A stretch of DNA of 43,805 bases from assembly GCA_031292625.1 (NCBI GenBank), contig JARLGU010000040.1, forward strand, positions 1-43,805, given 5' to 3'. Below the pieces are notes generated by a model. The model saw only the letters and a program-made list of their open reading frames with translations. It was not told the DNA's origin and did not search any database. The position numbers were made by a program, and so were the translations under genes. This DNA comes from Capsulimonadaceae bacterium. Lineage in GTDB: Bacteria > Armatimonadota > Armatimonadia > Armatimonadales > Capsulimonadaceae. The stretch's first letter is position 1. Each line of letters opens with the position of its first letter. This document shows, in pieces, positions 19,495 through 39,241 of the stretch.

Positions 19495-20376
19495 ATGAAA
19501 CCACGACGAGGTTTTACTTTAATAGAACTGCTCGTAGTTATAGCAATAATTGCTATTTTAGCTGCAATCTTGTTTCCGGTGTTCGCGACGGCGCGGGAAA
19601 AGGCTCGGGCGACCGCCTGTTTGTCTAACGAAAAGCAGATTGGCTTAGCGGTCGTCCAGTACAATGCCGACTATGACGAAACCGAGCCCTGCGGCTTTTC
19701 GCGCACGAACAGGCTCATCGGCTGGGCGTGTCAGCTATATCCTTACGTTAAGTCCAAGGCTGTTTTCGTCTGCCCGAGCGATACGACGCCAGGTGCGTCC
19801 AGTTCCTACGCGATCAACAACAACATTATTGGAACCACCGGTTCGGTCCCGTATCCCGGCCTCGCGCTTTCGATGTTTACCGCGCCATCAAAGACCGTGC
19901 TGCTGGCCGAGATCACGGGTTCGGCGGGGTACGATGTTTCCGATCTCAACTGTGCCGACTATGTGAGCGATTGCCACTACCAGGCCGGCAACATTGGAGG
20001 GTATTCTCCGAGTTGCGTCGGAAGCGGCGATGCCGGCAATGGGGGCTATGATCCCTATACGAGCTCCTATTTGGCCACCGATATTGCATGTGGCTCGTCG
20101 GGCGGTTGCAACGCAAATTTCACGCTCAAGTACGCGACCGGCTATATCTCGAACACATTGCCCGCCGATTATCCTGTTTTTTCTTCGCCTACCGGGCGAC
20201 ACAACAATGGGGCCAACTATATCATGGCGGACGGGCACGTAAAGTGGCTGATGGGCACGCTCGTCAGCGGCGGCCAGTTTAACTCGACATATACTCAAAA
20301 TACGAATCCGTACGTTGACGCCTGGTCCGCCGGCACGGCCGTGACTCCTTATGCGGCAACATATAGTCCCATATAA
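19495..20376 (+). CDS. Prepilin-like protein with N-terminal methylation signal and H-X9-DG motif (DUF1559 type)
   Basis: 293 residues beginning [20 protein letters not shown]: a short basic leader, the prepilin peptidase site before Phe, Glu at mature position 5 and a long hydrophobic helix. The next block, [20 protein letters not shown], and the terminal [18 protein letters not shown] (His, nine residues, Asp-Gly) define the H-X9-DG type prepilin-like family, which is strongly expanded in Planctomycetes and Armatimonadota. It should be processed and anchored in the envelope, possibly as a pseudopilin of a type II-like apparatus; the role is unknown. It sits 35 bases after the regulator and before a secreted hydrolase, suggesting co-expression. 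Confidence 0.9.
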
Positions 20377-32371: not shown

Positions 32372-33652
32372 TTATTCTTGCCCTATCGTCTTCGCGATAA
32401 ACTCATCCAGCGTCGCCTTCGTTTGTTCGCCGGTTGCCATCGTCTTGACGACCACGTCGCCGCTCGCGAGTTCATCGTCGCCGACGATCAGCGCGTACGG
32501 CGCGGCGCTCTTGCCGGCTGCGCGCATCTGAGCTTTCATGCTGCGCCCCGCGTAGTCCATGTCCGCCGCGATCCCCGCTTCCCGCAGGCGCGTCAGCAGC
32601 GCCAGACCCTGGCTCGCCGCGTTCTCGCCAAGCGTCACGATAAAGGCTGTGAGCGGCGGCGCGGTGTCAGGACGGCGATTGAGCTTTTCGAGGGCGATCA
32701 GGACCCGCTCGATCCCGAGGCCAAAACCAATGCCGGGGGTCGACGGACCGCCAAGCTCTTCGACGAGGCCGTCGTAGCGTCCGCCGCCGCAGAGCGTCGA
32801 CTGAGCGCCGAGATCCGGCGATTGGATCTCGAATGCGGTTTTCGTGTAGTAGTCGAAGCCGCGGACGAGGCGCGAATCGATTTCATATTGTGCGCCGAGT
32901 GCGGTCAGGTTGGCTTTGAACGCCTCGAAGTGCGTCCGGCATTCGTCGCAAATGTAATCGATATAGCTAGGAGCGCCTTCGAGCAGCTTTTGGTCGCCGG
33001 GGTCCTTGCTGTCCAACATGCGCAACGGGTTTTCGTTGAAACGTCGCTGGTTGTCGGCCGACATCTGGCCGACGAATGGCCGCGCGAACTCGACAAGCGC
33101 GTCGCGGTACGCTGGCCGGCAGTTCGGACAGCCGACCGAGTTCACCTTGGTGACCAGCCGGTCGAGGCCGAGACGGCGGTAGATGCTCAGCGCGAGCCAG
33201 ACAACTTCAGCGTCGATCCGAGGATCGCGTGAACCAAGGGCTTCGATGCCGAACTGCGTGTGCTGGCGGAAGCGTCCTTCCTGCGGGCGTTCGTAGCGAA
33301 AGATGGGACCGATATAGAAGAGCTTGGCAACGCCGCCTTCGGCGTAGATCGAGTTCTCGATATAGGCGCGCAGGGCCGGGGCGGTGCCTTCGGGGCGGAG
33401 CGTCAGCGAATCGCCGCCTTTGGACTCGAACGTATACATCTCTTTGGAGACGATATCGGTTCCTTCGCCGACTGCGCGCGTGAACAGGCCGGTGGGCTCG
33501 ATAACGGGTGTCCGGACTTCCTGGTATCCGTGCAGCGCCGCGAGCTCTCGGAAGATTGTTTCGAGTCGGTTCCAGAGAGCGGTGTTTTCGTGCCACTTGC
33601 GCGCGCCGGGATAGACGTCGTGTGTGCCTTTAGGGGCTTGAAACTTTGCCAT
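32372..33652 (-). CDS. hisS: Histidyl-tRNA synthetase
   Basis: Charges tRNA-His with histidine. The 426-residue protein starts MAKFQAPKGTHDVYPG and has motif 2 (FRYERPQEGRFRQHTQFGIEALG), the histidine-specific loops LVRGFDYYTKTAFE and GGGRYDGL, motif 3 (GFGLGIERVLIAL) and the C-terminal anticodon-binding domain. The hisS-aspS order is common in bacteria. No T-box or other leader structure was seen in the 230 bases upstream. Confidence 0.97.
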   Translation of the reverse strand: MAKFQAPKGTHDVYPGARKWHENTALWNRLETIFRELAALHGYQEVRTPVIEPTGLFTRAVGEGTDIVSKEMYTFESKGGDSLTLRPEGTAPALRAYIENSIYAEGGVAKLFYIGPIFRYERPQEGRFRQHTQFGIEALGSRDPRIDAEVVWLALSIYRRLGLDRLVTKVNSVGCPNCRPAYRDALVEFARPFVGQMSADNQRRFNENPLRMLDSKDPGDQKLLEGAPSYIDYICDECRTHFEAFKANLTALGAQYEIDSRLVRGFDYYTKTAFEIQSPDLGAQSTLCGGGRYDGLVEELGGPSTPGIGFGLGIERVLIALEKLNRRPDTAPPLTAFIVTLGENAASQGLALLTRLREAGIAADMDYAGRSMKAQMRAAGKSAAPYALIVGDDELASGDVVVKTMATGEQTKATLDEFIAKTIGQE

Positions 33653-33763
33653 GAGGAATTATTGTACTTCAGTGCGTCAAGCTGGGTCAAGGCGGAGACG
33701 GGCTCCTGCAGAGCATCGAGATGGAGCAATAGGACACTCCGGCTTCGCCGAGTGGATGTGCAG

Positions 33764-33772
33764 TGTTATAAT
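33764..33772 (+). promoter_or_regulatory. Extended -10 promoter element upstream of rloA
   Basis: TGTTATAAT (TG at 33764-33765, TATAAT at 33767-33772) is a perfect extended -10 element; no good -35 hexamer lies 16-18 bases before it. It would give a leader of about 105 bases before the rloA ATG, which has GAGG 7 bases upstream. Confidence 0.5.
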
Positions 33773-33884
33773 TTGCGGAATATCCGTACTGTTTTTGGGT
33801 AGAACTCTATAAGTGATCTCCCAATAATGCGTCTTGTACGGATTTATCGTATTGAGGCCATAATGATATTAGTGAGGCAGCGAT

Positions 33885-35165
33885 ATGTTAGTCGAATTTT
33901 CCGTCGAAAACTACAAGTCATTCAAGGAGCGCGCAACCTTAAGCATGGTTGCAGCCAACATTACGTCAGAAGATCCGGATCTGGACAAAAACGCGGTCGT
34001 CCCGATTTCGGCGAACCTCGGTCTCCTAAGATGCGCCGGAGTTTACGGGGCCAACGCGAGTGGTAAAAGCAACGTCGTTTCGGCAATCGCGTCTATGCGT
34101 TCGTTCGTGCTAGATTCGTCATCGAAAATGACGGCTGGGGACAAGATTGGCGTCGAACCGTTCCGATTGAGCACGGAGACAGCCAACGCACCCTCGTTGT
34201 TCGAGGTCGTATTCAGGCTTGACGGTATCCAATATCGATACGGGTTCGAGGTTACGCAGGAGGCCGTTGTGTCGGAATGGCTGTTTAGTGTGCCAAAGAA
34301 GGCAGAGAAGTGTCTGTTTAGGCGTACGAATCAAGATATCGAGGTCCACAAGGAACTCAGGGCCGAATGGCACCCTCTGACTGAGTTTACGCGGCCGAAC
34401 GCGTTGTTCCTGTCGGTTATGGCTCAATTCGAGAGGAAGTTGCCGAAAGAGCTGAACGGCTGGTTTGATCGTCTTGAAACGACCGTCGGACTACATGACG
34501 AATATCGCAATTTCACTTTAATGCTGGTGAATAGCGATTCTCTTAAGAACAACGTTATCTCCCTAATTCGGTCGCTGGACCTGGGCTTTGAGGATATTCA
34601 TCTTTCCGAACCAGATGCTACGCTGGTTTCCGCATACGCTAATCTTGACGGAGATCTTAAAGATACCCTTACGACTCTTTCGAAGCGACCGCTCTCCTCA
34701 CATATCATCTATGACAATGGTGGACATCCTGTCGGGCAAGCTGAGTTCGAAATCGATAAGAATGAGTCTCATGGCACCCGGAAACTTGTCGCGCTGGCTG
34801 GTCAGCTGTACTCTCTTCTGCGACGCGGCGGCGTCTTTGTTGTAGATGAACTCGACGCGCGCCTTCATCCCCTCATTACTCGCCGCATCGTTGAGATGTT
34901 CAACTCTGAAATAACCAACCCCGACGGCGCACAGCTCATTTTCGTTACGCACGACACGAACCTGCTCGACAAGTCATTGCTCCGTCGTGATCAGATCTGG
35001 TTCGCGGAAAAGGACCGCTTCGCTTCGACGCATCTCGTTTCGTTGGTTGAGTATAAACCGAGGAACGATGCGGCACTGGAGAAGAACTATCTCCAAGGAC
35101 GGTACGGGGCGATCCCCTTCCTGGGAGACCTGACTCGCCTACCAGGAGCGAGCAATGAAATCTAA
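33885..35165 (+). CDS. RloA/AbiLi-type AAA (ABC-like) ATPase of an antiphage pair
   Basis: 426 residues with ABC/SMC-type ATPase motifs: the N-terminal FSVENYKSFKERATLSM lobe, Walker A GANASGKS at 55-62, the signature-like NESHGTRKLVALAGQLY, Walker B GVFVVDELDARLHP and the switch histidine in IFVTHDTNLLD. This is the pattern of RloA/AbiLi-family proteins, one half of the two-gene RloAB/AbiL system that protects against phage, probably by abortive action. The rloB-type gene starts inside its last codons (ATGAAATCTAA overlap, 11 bases), confirming the pairing. Codon use is less GC-biased than the neighbouring synthetase genes, suggesting later acquisition. Confidence 0.85.
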   Translation: MLVEFSVENYKSFKERATLSMVAANITSEDPDLDKNAVVPISANLGLLRCAGVYGANASGKSNVVSAIASMRSFVLDSSSKMTAGDKIGVEPFRLSTETANAPSLFEVVFRLDGIQYRYGFEVTQEAVVSEWLFSVPKKAEKCLFRRTNQDIEVHKELRAEWHPLTEFTRPNALFLSVMAQFERKLPKELNGWFDRLETTVGLHDEYRNFTLMLVNSDSLKNNVISLIRSLDLGFEDIHLSEPDATLVSAYANLDGDLKDTLTTLSKRPLSSHIIYDNGGHPVGQAEFEIDKNESHGTRKLVALAGQLYSLLRRGGVFVVDELDARLHPLITRRIVEMFNSEITNPDGAQLIFVTHDTNLLDKSLLRRDQIWFAEKDRFASTHLVSLVEYKPRNDAALEKNYLQGRYGAIPFLGDLTRLPGASNEI

Positions 35166-35787
35166 CCGCCGTGATCCGTTTAAGCCGCAATCGTCACGGA
35201 CGTCGCGCGATAGGATCGTCGGCATCCGGTACCGCAAGAAGCGCTTCTTGATCGTATGTGAAGGCGAGAAAACCTAGAAAAACTATTTTGAGTCTTTTCG
35301 AATTCCACGTGACCTATTGGTGGTAAGGGGGACCGGGCGCAATACACTCAGCCTGATTGACATGGCCATAGAAATCAGGGAAAGAGAACAGAAGGCGGGC
35401 AAGTTTGACCAATGCTGGTGCGTATTTGACAAGGACTCATTTGATGACGACAATTTCGACAATGCCGTAGCAAAGGCAGAGGCGCAGGGTTTCCGGGTCG
35501 CCTATTCCAACGAGGCATTCGAGCTGTGGTACTTGCTTCATTTTAGTTATTGCGATGCGCGACTCGCCCGGCAGGCATTGTGCGACAAATTGGACGAAGC
35601 GCTGGGGGCAAAATACGATAAGGCCGCAGCACATTACGAAGCTCTACTTCCGCTCCAAGCGGCCGCCCTACGAAATGCTAGGAAGCTCATGTCGACCTAT
35701 ATCGATGTTCTGAAGCCGCATGAACGGTCGCCGGGAACGACAGTTCATGAGCTTGTCGAGGAGTTGAACAAAAACGTTGCTTGGTAA
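35155..35787 (+). pseudogene. RloB/AbiLii-type partner, interrupted by an in-frame amber codon
   Basis: The frame from the ATG at 35155 (AGGAG site 6 bases upstream) to the TAA at 35785 would encode 210 residues of the RloB family, but codon 41 (35275-35277) is TAG. It falls in the most conserved N-terminal motif: FLIVCEGEKT, stop, KNYFESFRIP; relatives have Glu there (CEGEKTE), so a single G-to-T change of GAG explains it. The rest is intact, with CVFDKDSFDDDNF and SNEAFELWYLLHF. Only a 40-residue peptide, or a late-started fragment from about 35317, would be made unless the codon is read through. The gene is otherwise undamaged, so the lesion is recent, suppressed, or a sequencing error. 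Confidence 0.85.
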
Positions 35788-35802
35788 AATTATTTGCGCG
35801 CC

Positions 35803-35837
35803 AAAAAAGGGGGACCGCAATTATTGCACGGCCCCCC
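35803..35837 (-). terminator. Intrinsic terminator of the hydrogenase operon
   Basis: Read on the minus strand, GGGGG and CCG arms pair with CGG and CCCCC across one mismatch around a cAATaATTg core, and the stem is followed by TTTTTT (35808-35803). It lies 30 bases beyond the hydA stop codon and also sits directly behind rloB. Confidence 0.85.
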
Positions 35838-35867: not shown

Positions 35868-37613
35868 CTATCGCTGGTACACGGGAAGCCGCTTGTACTT
35901 CGTGTGCAGCAGGTGGTGCGACTTTTCGCCAAGCGGTTTGCCGAGGTACTCGTCGTAGAGCTTGATCACTGACGGGTTCTCGTGCGAGCAGCGCAGGGTG
36001 AGCCCTTCGTCCTCGCTGTAAAGGCCCTTCGCGCGCTTGATGCGTAGCTCATCGGTCACGCCGTACGGCTGGCCGCCGCCGCCGACGCAACCGCCGGGGC
36101 AGGCCATCACTTCGATGAAGTGATAAGGAAGCTCCTCGCCGTTTTCCTTGGCCTTGCGCACCTTGTCGATGACGTACTCGACGTTGGCTAGGCCGTGGGC
36201 GACCGCGATGCGAACTTCGTGACCGGCGACGTTGATCTTGGTCTCTTTGACGCCCTGGATGCCGCGAACGTTTTCGAACTCGAGCTTGGCAAGCTTCTCG
36301 CCGGTAACGTAGTGCGCGGCGGTCCGCAGGGCGGCCTCCATGACGCCTCCGGTAGCTCCGAAGATCGTCCCAGCACCCGTGTAGTCGCCGAGCAGATGGT
36401 CGCATTCTTCGCCTTCGAGGCTGTTGAAGTCGACGCCCGACTGGCGAATCATGCGAGCAAGCTCACGGGTTGTCAGGGAGATGTCGACATCCTGGAAGCC
36501 GGACGAGCTCATGTCCGGGTTTCGATGGATCTCGTACTTCTTCGCAGTACACGGCATGATCGAAACAACGAAGACCTTGGAGGGGTCGATGTTGTTCTTT
36601 TCAGCATAGTACGTCTTTGCGAGCGCGCCGACCATTTCGTGCGGAGATTTCGCCGTCGAAAAGTGATCGATCATGTCGCCGTGGAACTTCTCCATGAAAT
36701 CGACCCACGCCGGGCAGCACGACGTGATCAGCGGGAGCGTCCCCTTGCCATGCGCGAAGCGCTCGACGAACTCGCTGGCCTCTTCGATGATCGTCAGGTC
36801 CGCGCCGAAGTTGGTATCGAAGATGGCCTTGAAGCCCATCCTACGCAACGCGGCGTAAATCTGCGGGGTCAGGTTGACGCCAGGCTCGAATCCGAAGTGC
36901 TCGCCAATCGTGACGCGGACCGCGGGAGCGATCTGGACGACGCAATGAAGATCGGGATCGCCGAGCGCTTCCCAGGCTTTGGGCGAGTCGTCGAACTCGA
37001 AGATCGCGCCGGTCGGGCAGTGCGCGGAGCACTGACCGCAGCGAACGCAGGGCGAGTCGCTCAGCGTAATGTCGCCTGCTGGGGAGATGCGCGTTTTGAA
37101 TCCGCGCTCCAGGAACGACAGCGCCCAGACGTTTTGCATCTGCTGGCACACTTCGATGCAGCGTCCGCACTTGATGCACTTGCGCGGCTCAAGGACGATT
37201 GTTCCGTTGGAAGCGTCCTTCGGCAGATCGGGGATGAACTTGTCGAAGGGAACCTCGCGGATTCCGAAATCGGCGAGCAAACTTTGCAGTTCGCACTGCG
37301 TGTTGCGGCCGCATGTCGCGCACTCGTCGGGGTGGTTGGACATGATTAACTCGAGCACGGTTTTGCGGACGCTGACGATTTCGGCGTCGTGCGTGATGAC
37401 GTGCATGCCTTCTTCGAGCGGCGTACAGCAGGCTCGCGGCATTTTATTGGAACCCTGAACGCGAACGATACAGATCCCGCATCCGGCGGACGCCTTCAGA
37501 TCGGGGTGCTTGCAAAGGGTCGGGATTTTGACCTGCACCAGCTTTGCCGCATCCAGAATCGTTGTGTTCGGTTCTACCTCAACGGGGATATCATTTATCC
37601 ACGCTTTGACCAT
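35868..37613 (-). CDS. hydA: [FeFe] hydrogenase catalytic subunit (NADH-linked, HydA/HndD type)
   Basis: This subunit interconverts protons and hydrogen at the H-cluster. The 581 residues comprise an N-terminal [2Fe-2S] domain (CKHPDLKASAGCGICIVRV), a His/Cys [4Fe-4S] site (HPDECATCGRNTQC), two ferredoxin-type clusters (CIKCGRCIEVCQ, CVRCGQCSAHCP) and the H domain. All three H-cluster signatures are intact: TSCCPAW, MPCTAKKYE and EVMACPGGCVGGGGQP. The ATG at 37613 is chosen because AAGGAG lies 8 bases upstream; a longer open frame to 37859 overlaps hydB and looks random. It is the last gene of the hydC-hydB-hydA operon. The maturases HydE, HydF and HydG are not in the window. Confidence 0.96.
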   Translation of the reverse strand: MVKAWINDIPVEVEPNTTILDAAKLVQVKIPTLCKHPDLKASAGCGICIVRVQGSNKMPRACCTPLEEGMHVITHDAEIVSVRKTVLELIMSNHPDECATCGRNTQCELQSLLADFGIREVPFDKFIPDLPKDASNGTIVLEPRKCIKCGRCIEVCQQMQNVWALSFLERGFKTRISPAGDITLSDSPCVRCGQCSAHCPTGAIFEFDDSPKAWEALGDPDLHCVVQIAPAVRVTIGEHFGFEPGVNLTPQIYAALRRMGFKAIFDTNFGADLTIIEEASEFVERFAHGKGTLPLITSCCPAWVDFMEKFHGDMIDHFSTAKSPHEMVGALAKTYYAEKNNIDPSKVFVVSIMPCTAKKYEIHRNPDMSSSGFQDVDISLTTRELARMIRQSGVDFNSLEGEECDHLLGDYTGAGTIFGATGGVMEAALRTAAHYVTGEKLAKLEFENVRGIQGVKETKINVAGHEVRIAVAHGLANVEYVIDKVRKAKENGEELPYHFIEVMACPGGCVGGGGQPYGVTDELRIKRAKGLYSEDEGLTLRCSHENPSVIKLYDEYLGKPLGEKSHHLLHTKYKRLPVYQR

Positions 37614-37642
37614 TGTAATTCTCCTTAAATTCCATCGCGGCG

Positions 37643-39241
37643 TCAGGCCTTGATCAGATCCTTGTATTCGTTTTCGAAGTACCGAAGGGTGGACAGGACG
37701 GGATTGGACGCCGTTTGGCCCAAGCCGCACAGGGATGCTTTTTGCATGGCGCGAGAGATCTTTCTGAGGCTGCCGAGATCGGCGAGTTCCCCTTTGCCGT
37801 CGGCGATCTTCTCGAGCAGATGCAGCATCTGCGTACCGCCAATTCGGCAGGGCGCGCATTTGCCGCAGGATTCATCCACGCAGAAACCAAGGTAGAACTT
37901 CGCGATGTCAACCATCGAGTCGTCCTCGTCCATGACGATCATGCCGCCGGATCCCATGATGGAACCGAGTTTTTGCAGCTCTTCGTACGTTACCGGGGTA
38001 TCGAAATACTCTTCGGGGATCACGCCGCCGGACGGTCCGCCCGTCTGAATGGCCTTGACCTTTTTGCCTCCGCCCGCGCCGCCGCCGATATCGTAAACGA
38101 TCTCCCGGATCGTCGTGCCCATCGGCACTTCGACCAGACCGGAGTTGGCGACCTTGCCGGTTACGGCGAAGACTTTGGTCCCAGTCGACTTTTCAAGGCC
38201 GATCGAAGCAAACCATTCCGGACCCTTCGCGAAGATTGCCGAAACATTGGCGAGAGTTTCAACGTTGTTGATGCAGGTTGGCTTGTCGAAAACGCCCTTG
38301 ACCGAGGGGTAGGGCGGGCGAGGATGCGGATAGCCTCTCTTCCCTTCGATCGATGCGATCAAGGCTGTCTCTTCGCCGCAGACGAATGCGCCGGCTCCGA
38401 GGCGGATCTCAAGATCGAACGAGAAGTCGGTGCCGAGAATGTTTTGTCCGAGGAAGCCCTGTGCGCGAGCCTGCTTAATCGCCTTCTCCGCGCGTTCGAT
38501 GGCGAGCGGATATTCGGCTCGAATGTAGAAGAATCCCTTCGTGGCTCCGGTGGCGTAACCGCCGATGACCAGGCCTTCGAGGACGGCATGAGGATCGCCT
38601 TCGAGGACGCCGCGGTCCATATAGGCGCCGGGATCGCCTTCGTCGGCGTTGCAGACGATATACTTTTCGTCCGCCTGCGACTTACTGGTGATGTCCCACT
38701 TAAGACCGGTCGGGAAGCCCGCTCCGCCTCGCCCTCGCAGGCCGCTCTTCTTCAGGTCGGCGATCACCTGCTCGGGAGACGATTCCAACAAGACCTTCGC
38801 GAGAGCCTGATAGCCTCCGGCGGCAATGTAGTCGCGAATATTGTCCGGGTCGATGACGCCGCAGTTGCGGAGAACGACGCGGAGCTGCTTGTCTTTGACT
38901 TGCGGGACCGCCCACTCCTTGATGACCTGCTTGCCCGTAATGTGCTTCTCGATAATCGCGGAAACCATGTCCTTGCTGACGTTCTTATACGTCACCGTGG
39001 GCATGCCTTCCATTGCGACCTCTACGAGGGGCTCGAAGGCGCACTTTCCCGCACAGCCGCATCGCTTAACTTCGACTTGAATCTGTGCCTTACGGAGTTG
39101 CTGGCGCAACTCGAAATAGGTTTCCTGGGCGCCCGCGGCGATGCCGCAGGTAGAGAGGCCCACCTTGATCCACGTGTTCTTGCCACTCTTAACGATCTCA
39201 TCCTGCATCGTCGCGAGGTCTTGGATGCTCGTTGGTTTCAT
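37643..39241 (-). CDS. hydB: NADH-binding flavoprotein subunit of the hydrogenase (HydB/HndC, NuoF-like)
   Basis: 532 residues. An N-terminal thioredoxin-like [2Fe-2S] domain (about 1-110; STCGIAAGA and RCGCAGKCAFEPL) precedes a NuoF-type core with the FMN/NADH site (GLRGRGGAGFPTGLKW, NADEGDPGAYMDRG) and a [4Fe-4S] site near the end (CVDESCGKCAPCRIGGTQM, with a later Cys in KASLCGLGQ). It passes electrons between NAD(H) and the hydrogenase. The protein ends right after the NuoF domain (YFENEYKDLIKA): the C-terminal two-cluster ferredoxin domain found on classical HydB/HndC subunits is missing. Good ribosome binding site; 29 bases separate it from hydA. Confidence 0.93.
   Translation of the reverse strand: MKPTSIQDLATMQDEIVKSGKNTWIKVGLSTCGIAAGAQETYFELRQQLRKAQIQVEVKRCGCAGKCAFEPLVEVAMEGMPTVTYKNVSKDMVSAIIEKHITGKQVIKEWAVPQVKDKQLRVVLRNCGVIDPDNIRDYIAAGGYQALAKVLLESSPEQVIADLKKSGLRGRGGAGFPTGLKWDITSKSQADEKYIVCNADEGDPGAYMDRGVLEGDPHAVLEGLVIGGYATGATKGFFYIRAEYPLAIERAEKAIKQARAQGFLGQNILGTDFSFDLEIRLGAGAFVCGEETALIASIEGKRGYPHPRPPYPSVKGVFDKPTCINNVETLANVSAIFAKGPEWFASIGLEKSTGTKVFAVTGKVANSGLVEVPMGTTIREIVYDIGGGAGGGKKVKAIQTGGPSGGVIPEEYFDTPVTYEELQKLGSIMGSGGMIVMDEDDSMVDIAKFYLGFCVDESCGKCAPCRIGGTQMLHLLEKIADGKGELADLGSLRKISRAMQKASLCGLGQTASNPVLSTLRYFENEYKDLIKA

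What the first reader, a model, noticed from the sequence alone, without database searches (positions are those of the whole stretch)
35155..35787. Antiphage gene rloB carries a single amber codon in its CEGEKTE motif
Codon 41 is TAG where the family has Glu; the reading frame before and after is otherwise intact over 210 codons, and rloA is undamaged. One base change has silenced, or placed under suppression or phase-like control, one half of a defence pair. Loss of a costly abortive system, leaving the ATPase alone, would be biologically informative.
Basis: partly seen in the sequence, partly recalled or inferred. Interest (0 to 1): 0.6.

Follow-up and report, generated by a model that had tools for sequence, protein, structure and literature searches.

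The report
Defence operon with freshly broken toxin
A bacterium of the phylum Armatimonadota carries a known kind of two-gene anti-virus system (RloAB/AbiL) whose toxin gene is cut off early by one stop codon while its controlling ATPase gene is whole; this is an ordinary recent gene loss, but it fits a pattern in relatives, where the toxin half breaks far more often than the ATPase half.

Summary
Codon 41 of rloB (35275-35277) is TAG; 167 of 169 intact relatives have Glu there. The rest of the 210-codon frame is open and keeps almost every conserved residue, and rloA (33885-35165) is intact. The pair is an AbiL/RloAB-type locus: AAA_21 ATPase AbiLi plus Toprim-like RloB/AbiLii. Its G+C is 51% against about 60% for its flanks, which suggests an acquired island.

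The best explanation is a recent single-base nonsense mutation that silenced the toxic effector, without meaningful read-through. The genome has RF1, no PylS above cut-off, and no CTA anticodon among its detected tRNAs. No relative shares the stop.

A sequencing error at this one base cannot be excluded, but about 195 gene stretches searched in the same assembly show no internal stop.

What I add is an asymmetry. Among 192 distinct rloB-bearing loci, ten have broken rloB beside intact rloA and one has the reverse, although rloA is over twice as long (binomial P about 5e-5; 1e-4 without this locus). Random assembly error would give the opposite bias; toxin-first loss would give this one. Suppression or phase-like control is not supported. 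Low to moderate interest.

The parts
33885..35165 (+). rloA / abiLi: AAA_21 (OLD/ABC-type) ATPase, 426 aa, intact; predicted sensor and neutraliser of RloB
   Evidence: PADLOC AbiLi 6.6e-99, Pfam AAA_21 1.8e-38; single open frame covering the rloA profile 18-443
35155..35787 (+). rloB / abiLii: Toprim-like effector gene, interrupted (pseudogene); overlaps the end of rloA by 11 nt
   Evidence: Pfam RloB 7.9e-47 when read through; PADLOC AbiLii 5.3e-32
35275..35277 (+). in-frame TAG at codon 41, in place of the nearly invariant Glu of the CEGxxTE motif
   Evidence: Glu in 167 of 169 relatives
35317..35787 (+). longest reading frame left after the stop if translation restarted at a TTG (156 aa); lacks the EG motif, so not expected to be active
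   Evidence: ORF list; motif positions
35809..35837 (.). stem-loop between rloB and the convergent hydrogenase gene, terminator-like on the minus strand
   Evidence: the number of such sites in the region is not far above the shuffled expectation

Best explanation
The locus is a probably horizontally acquired AbiL/RloAB-type two-gene abortive-infection module in an Armatimonadota genome, in which a recent single nonsense substitution in rloB ends synthesis of the Toprim-like toxic effector after 40 residues. RloA is still encoded intact. By inference from tested homologues it would sense infection and hold RloB in check; without RloB it has nothing to hold back, so its retention is harmless and probably transient. 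The inferred reason why the toxin half breaks first is that losing the neutraliser frees the toxin, whereas losing the toxin only costs defence. Shown here: the stop, the intact ATPase, the family identities, the recency of the damage, the lack of detectable suppression machinery and the toxin-first asymmetry across loci. Inferred: toxicity, neutralisation, the anti-phage role and the selective reason.
For: Stop confirmed, downstream frame otherwise open. Glu in 167/169 relatives; of 49 columns with one residue in at least 70% of relatives, the window differs from the commonest residue, apart from the stop, only at I68, L172 and S192; at 68 and 172 its residue is a listed alternative in relatives. 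I estimate from this under about 3% neutral drift since the break; the absence of further stops alone gives a weaker bound of about 12%. rloA intact. G+C 51% in 33700-35800 against about 60% on both sides, and no rloA beside hisS in the relatives checked, fit an acquired island. RF1 present, no PylS above cut-off, no CTA anticodon. Ten loci with rloB broken and rloA intact against one the other way; binomial P 4.6e-5, or 1.4e-4 without the window, rloB being 30% of the compared core. Homologues: C. algidicarnis TOPRIM_OLD D44 (RloB-like):AAA D29 passed toxicity-neutralisation assays in E. coli (PMC10440598); F. nucleatum AbiLii is toxic in E. coli (PMC3985639).
Against: No reads are available, so this one base could be an error. 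The genome is 96.4% complete and a few tRNA genes are missing from what was found (no Ile-GAT seen), so an unassembled suppressor tRNA is not strictly excluded. F. nucleatum AbiLi did not neutralise its AbiLii (PMC3985639), so an antitoxin role for RloA is not general. No close relative of this species with rloAB was available, so the age of the mutation is only bounded.
Confidence: 0.8

Rival explanations
1. The TAG is a sequencing or assembly error and rloB is intact in the organism.
For: Single base, one nucleotide from a Glu codon, other constrained sites kept; many broken rloB copies in the phylum also come from draft genomes. No reads can be seen.
Against: 45 ABC_tran and about 150 SBP_bac_10 stretches in the same assembly show no internal stop. 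Across loci, random error should hit the longer rloA more often, but the reverse is seen.
Confidence: 0.13
2. The stop is read through or suppressed at a functional level, making RloB conditionally expressed.
For: The downstream frame is still conserved, which recoding would also predict.
Against: RF1 is present; the PylS search gives only a sub-cut-off match of the kind most control genomes give; none of the detected tRNAs has CTA; no relative shares the stop, and broken relatives carry other lesions at other places.
Confidence: 0.04
3. The C-terminal part is translated from an internal start and has a function of its own, for example as an RloA-bound inhibitor.
For: A 156-codon frame with a TTG start remains.
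Against: It lacks the EG motif; no relative was seen with a separately conserved C-terminal half, and broken copies differ in which part remains.
Confidence: 0.02

Closest known systems
AbiL (AbiLi/AbiLii) of Lactococcus lactis and the RloA/RloB pair (Pfam RloB PF13707)
   Same: Same ATPase and effector families in one two-gene operon
   Different: Here the effector has a nonsense codon and cannot be made full-length; phage defence was not tested
TOPRIM_OLD D44:AAA D29 toxin-antitoxin pair (NetFlax, C. algidicarnis)
   Same: RloB-homologous toxin next to an AAA ATPase that neutralises it in E. coli (PMC10440598)
   Different: The window toxin is truncated; neutralisation by this RloA is untested
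PARIS (AriA/AriB)
   Same: Split OLD-like layout: ABC ATPase sensor plus separate Toprim nuclease effector; a Toprim Glu mutant (AriB E26A) is inactive (PMC12409363)
   Different: The effector family matched here is RloB/AbiLii; rloA matches AbiLi far better than AriA (6.6e-99 against 1.2e-35)

Membership tests
AbiL / RloAB | AbiLi-type AAA ATPase | tested here: met
   PADLOC AbiLi 6.6e-99, Pfam AAA_21 1.8e-38
AbiL / RloAB | Adjacent RloB/AbiLii gene in the same operon | tested here: met
   11-nt overlap; Pfam RloB 7.9e-47 and AbiLii 5.3e-32 on the read-through frame
AbiL / RloAB | Uninterrupted effector reading frame | tested here: not met
   TAG at codon 41: a degraded member, not a working one
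AbiL / RloAB | Toprim fold of the effector | tested here: inconclusive
   AlphaFold model mean pLDDT 83.7; Foldseek found nothing at E <= 0.001; VIA-align lists OLD C-terminal regions at Z 6.2-7.2 (6nk8, 6njv, 6njx) and a small Toprim protein at Z 5.1 (2fcj) among unrelated alpha/beta folds up to Z 8.2
AbiL / RloAB | Protection from phages by abortive infection | not testable with these tools
   needs a phage assay
PARIS | AriA and AriB homologues as best matches | tested here: not met
   effector gave only AbiLii and a weak PDC-M12B match, no AriB match; ATPase matches AbiLi far better than AriA
Stop-codon recoding or amber suppression | Pyrrolysine system or CUA-anticodon tRNA | tested here: not met
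   RF1 present; genome 96.4% complete

The most novel reading that the evidence does not exclude
Toxin-first breakage is systematic in RloAB, and the surviving RloA is kept for a use of its own, for instance as an anti-addiction or immunity protein that neutralises RloB of incoming mobile elements, as has been proposed for solo antitoxins (from general knowledge).
Probability: 0.12. Interest if true: 0.45.

Novelty: new member of a known kind. Interest (0 to 1): 0.25.

Why it matters
On its own this is one more inactivated defence gene. Together with the survey it gives a countable asymmetry (ten loci with broken toxin and intact ATPase against one the other way) that fits RloA being the neutraliser in nature, where one paper found neutralisation by the AAA partner and another did not. 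It also warns that calling AbiL present from the ATPase alone overstates working defence.

Tried and rejected
Amber suppression or pyrrolysine: RF1 found, PylS only below cut-off, all 47 tRNA matches examined with no CTA anticodon. Phase variation: a substitution, not a change in a repeat; judged from the sequence around the site, no tandem-repeat program was run. Counting 'stops inside' from the AbiLi profile search was rejected, because that profile starts upstream of the true rloA start and counts stops before the gene; I used my own profiles instead. Sequence search of solved structures with the RloB profile gave nothing above noise, and Foldseek had no hit at E <= 0.001; no Toprim match stood out. 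Empty site: in the relatives checked, hisS has neither rloA nor the hydrogenase within the fetched stretch, and the nearest relative's contig ends soon after hisS, so the insertion point cannot be read. L024 and L232 have odd C-termini and were set aside as ambiguous. L028 was first scored intact because the profile bridges its internal deletion; it was recounted as broken by eye. L251 (only a C-terminal remnant of rloB left) was kept out of the count because it was found through rloA. No dN/dS was possible: the best relative is about 52% identical.

Full report
What is there. The window is one whole contig (G000:C5) of a 5.77-Mb, 65-contig genome. Its phylum mates are Armatimonadota: the same stretches come up under Armatimonadetes record titles. 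Between hisS (minus strand, 32372-33652) and a convergent [FeFe]-hydrogenase gene (minus strand, 35868-37859) sit two overlapping plus-strand genes. rloA (33885-35165) is a 426-residue AAA_21 ATPase matching PADLOC AbiLi at 6.6e-99. rloB (35155-35787) matches Pfam RloB at 7.9e-47 and AbiLii at 5.3e-32 when its single internal stop is read through. The pair has about 51% G+C against about 60% for its flanks, which suggests acquisition.

The stop. Codon 41 is TAG. I aligned the window protein with 169 intact RloB proteins from the loci gathered here: Glu stands at this column in 167. Among 49 columns with one residue in at least 70% of relatives, the window departs from the commonest residue at only three besides the stop (I68, L172, S192). 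My own estimate from the absence of any clear loss in 48 conserved codons is under about 3% neutral drift since the break. The lack of a second stop alone allows about 12%. The damage is therefore recent, or it is an error.

Suppression. RF1 is encoded. The PylS profile gives one sub-cut-off match, as it does in most control genomes. The genome search gave 47 tRNA matches. ARAGORN read an anticodon in all but one of them and none is CTA; the last, weak one aligns with CAU in its anticodon loop, by my reading of the alignment. No relative has a stop at this column. Functional read-through is unlikely.

Error. I cannot see reads. As a control I searched the same genome with two families: 45 ABC_tran stretches and about 150 listed SBP_bac_10 stretches have no internal stop. 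The assembly is not generally error-ridden, but one wrong base is not excluded.

A wider pattern. I collected rloB loci from the phylum, from a peptide-pattern scan of genome contigs and from 386 genomes of the phylum of a cyanobacterium, fetched their surroundings and asked, with profiles built here, whether each gene lies in a single open frame, reading doubtful cases by eye. After removing duplicates and loci fetched through rloA, 192 loci remain: 157 have both genes intact, 10 have rloB broken and rloA intact, 1 has rloA broken and rloB intact, 2 have both broken, 2 are ambiguous, and the rest have a partner absent or at a contig end. The ten are L001 (this window), L004 (TGA), L018, L026, L247 and L248 (frameshifts), L246 (frameshift with part missing), L028 (large in-frame internal deletion), L208 (frameshift or truncation) and L222 (TAA). 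The reverse is L146. With rloB 30% of the compared core, ten or more of eleven has P 4.6e-5, and nine or more of ten without the window 1.4e-4. Eight of the ten are in Armatimonadota, where my curated count finds no rloA broken beside an intact rloB. Random sequence error should fall on the longer rloA more often, so it does not explain the asymmetry. The searches were led by rloB, and one search kept the best matches, so broken rloB is if anything under-counted. The curation was done by me after seeing the data, without a pre-set rule for the doubtful cases.

Mechanism. In the literature, an RloB-homologous TOPRIM_OLD toxin and its AAA partner from C. algidicarnis passed toxicity-neutralisation assays in E. 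coli (PMC10440598). F. nucleatum AbiLii was toxic, though its AbiLi did not rescue (PMC3985639). In the analogous PARIS system the Toprim effector cuts tRNA and a Toprim Glu mutant is inactive (PMC12409363). I infer that losing the toxin is cheap and losing the neutraliser is costly, so the toxin half breaks first. An AlphaFold model of the read-through protein (pLDDT 83.7) gave no decisive structural match; OLD C-terminal regions and a small Toprim protein appear among unrelated alpha/beta folds.

Verdict. Observation confirmed; silencing supported; suppression and phase control not supported; sequencing error not excluded. It is a degraded member of a known system, with a modest new observation about the direction of decay.

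Noticed in passing
L028:1410-1700 (G210:C204): rloB with an in-frame internal deletion of roughly 125 codons: '...CEGEKTEPNYFR' runs straight into 'PSTTVHLLVQGLN', with rloA upstream intact.
   Followed up: partly
L121:3970-4546: Fischerella muscicola PCC 7414 (not a MAG record) has rloB with an in-frame stop just after the DxD motif and no rloA detected upstream.
   Followed up: partly
L009, L012, L013: Intact rloB without a detectable rloA beside it, in three genomes of one family; in L012 and L013 the upstream gene looks like an oligopeptide ABC-transporter ATPase.
   Followed up: no
L252, L253, L254, L255: AbiLi-type rloA in intact frame with no recognisable rloB beside it: solo ATPases or ones with another partner.
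   Followed up: no
G000, whole genome: About 150 SBP_bac_10 (DUF1559) pilin-like proteins in one genome; one lies in the window at 19495-20376.
   Followed up: no
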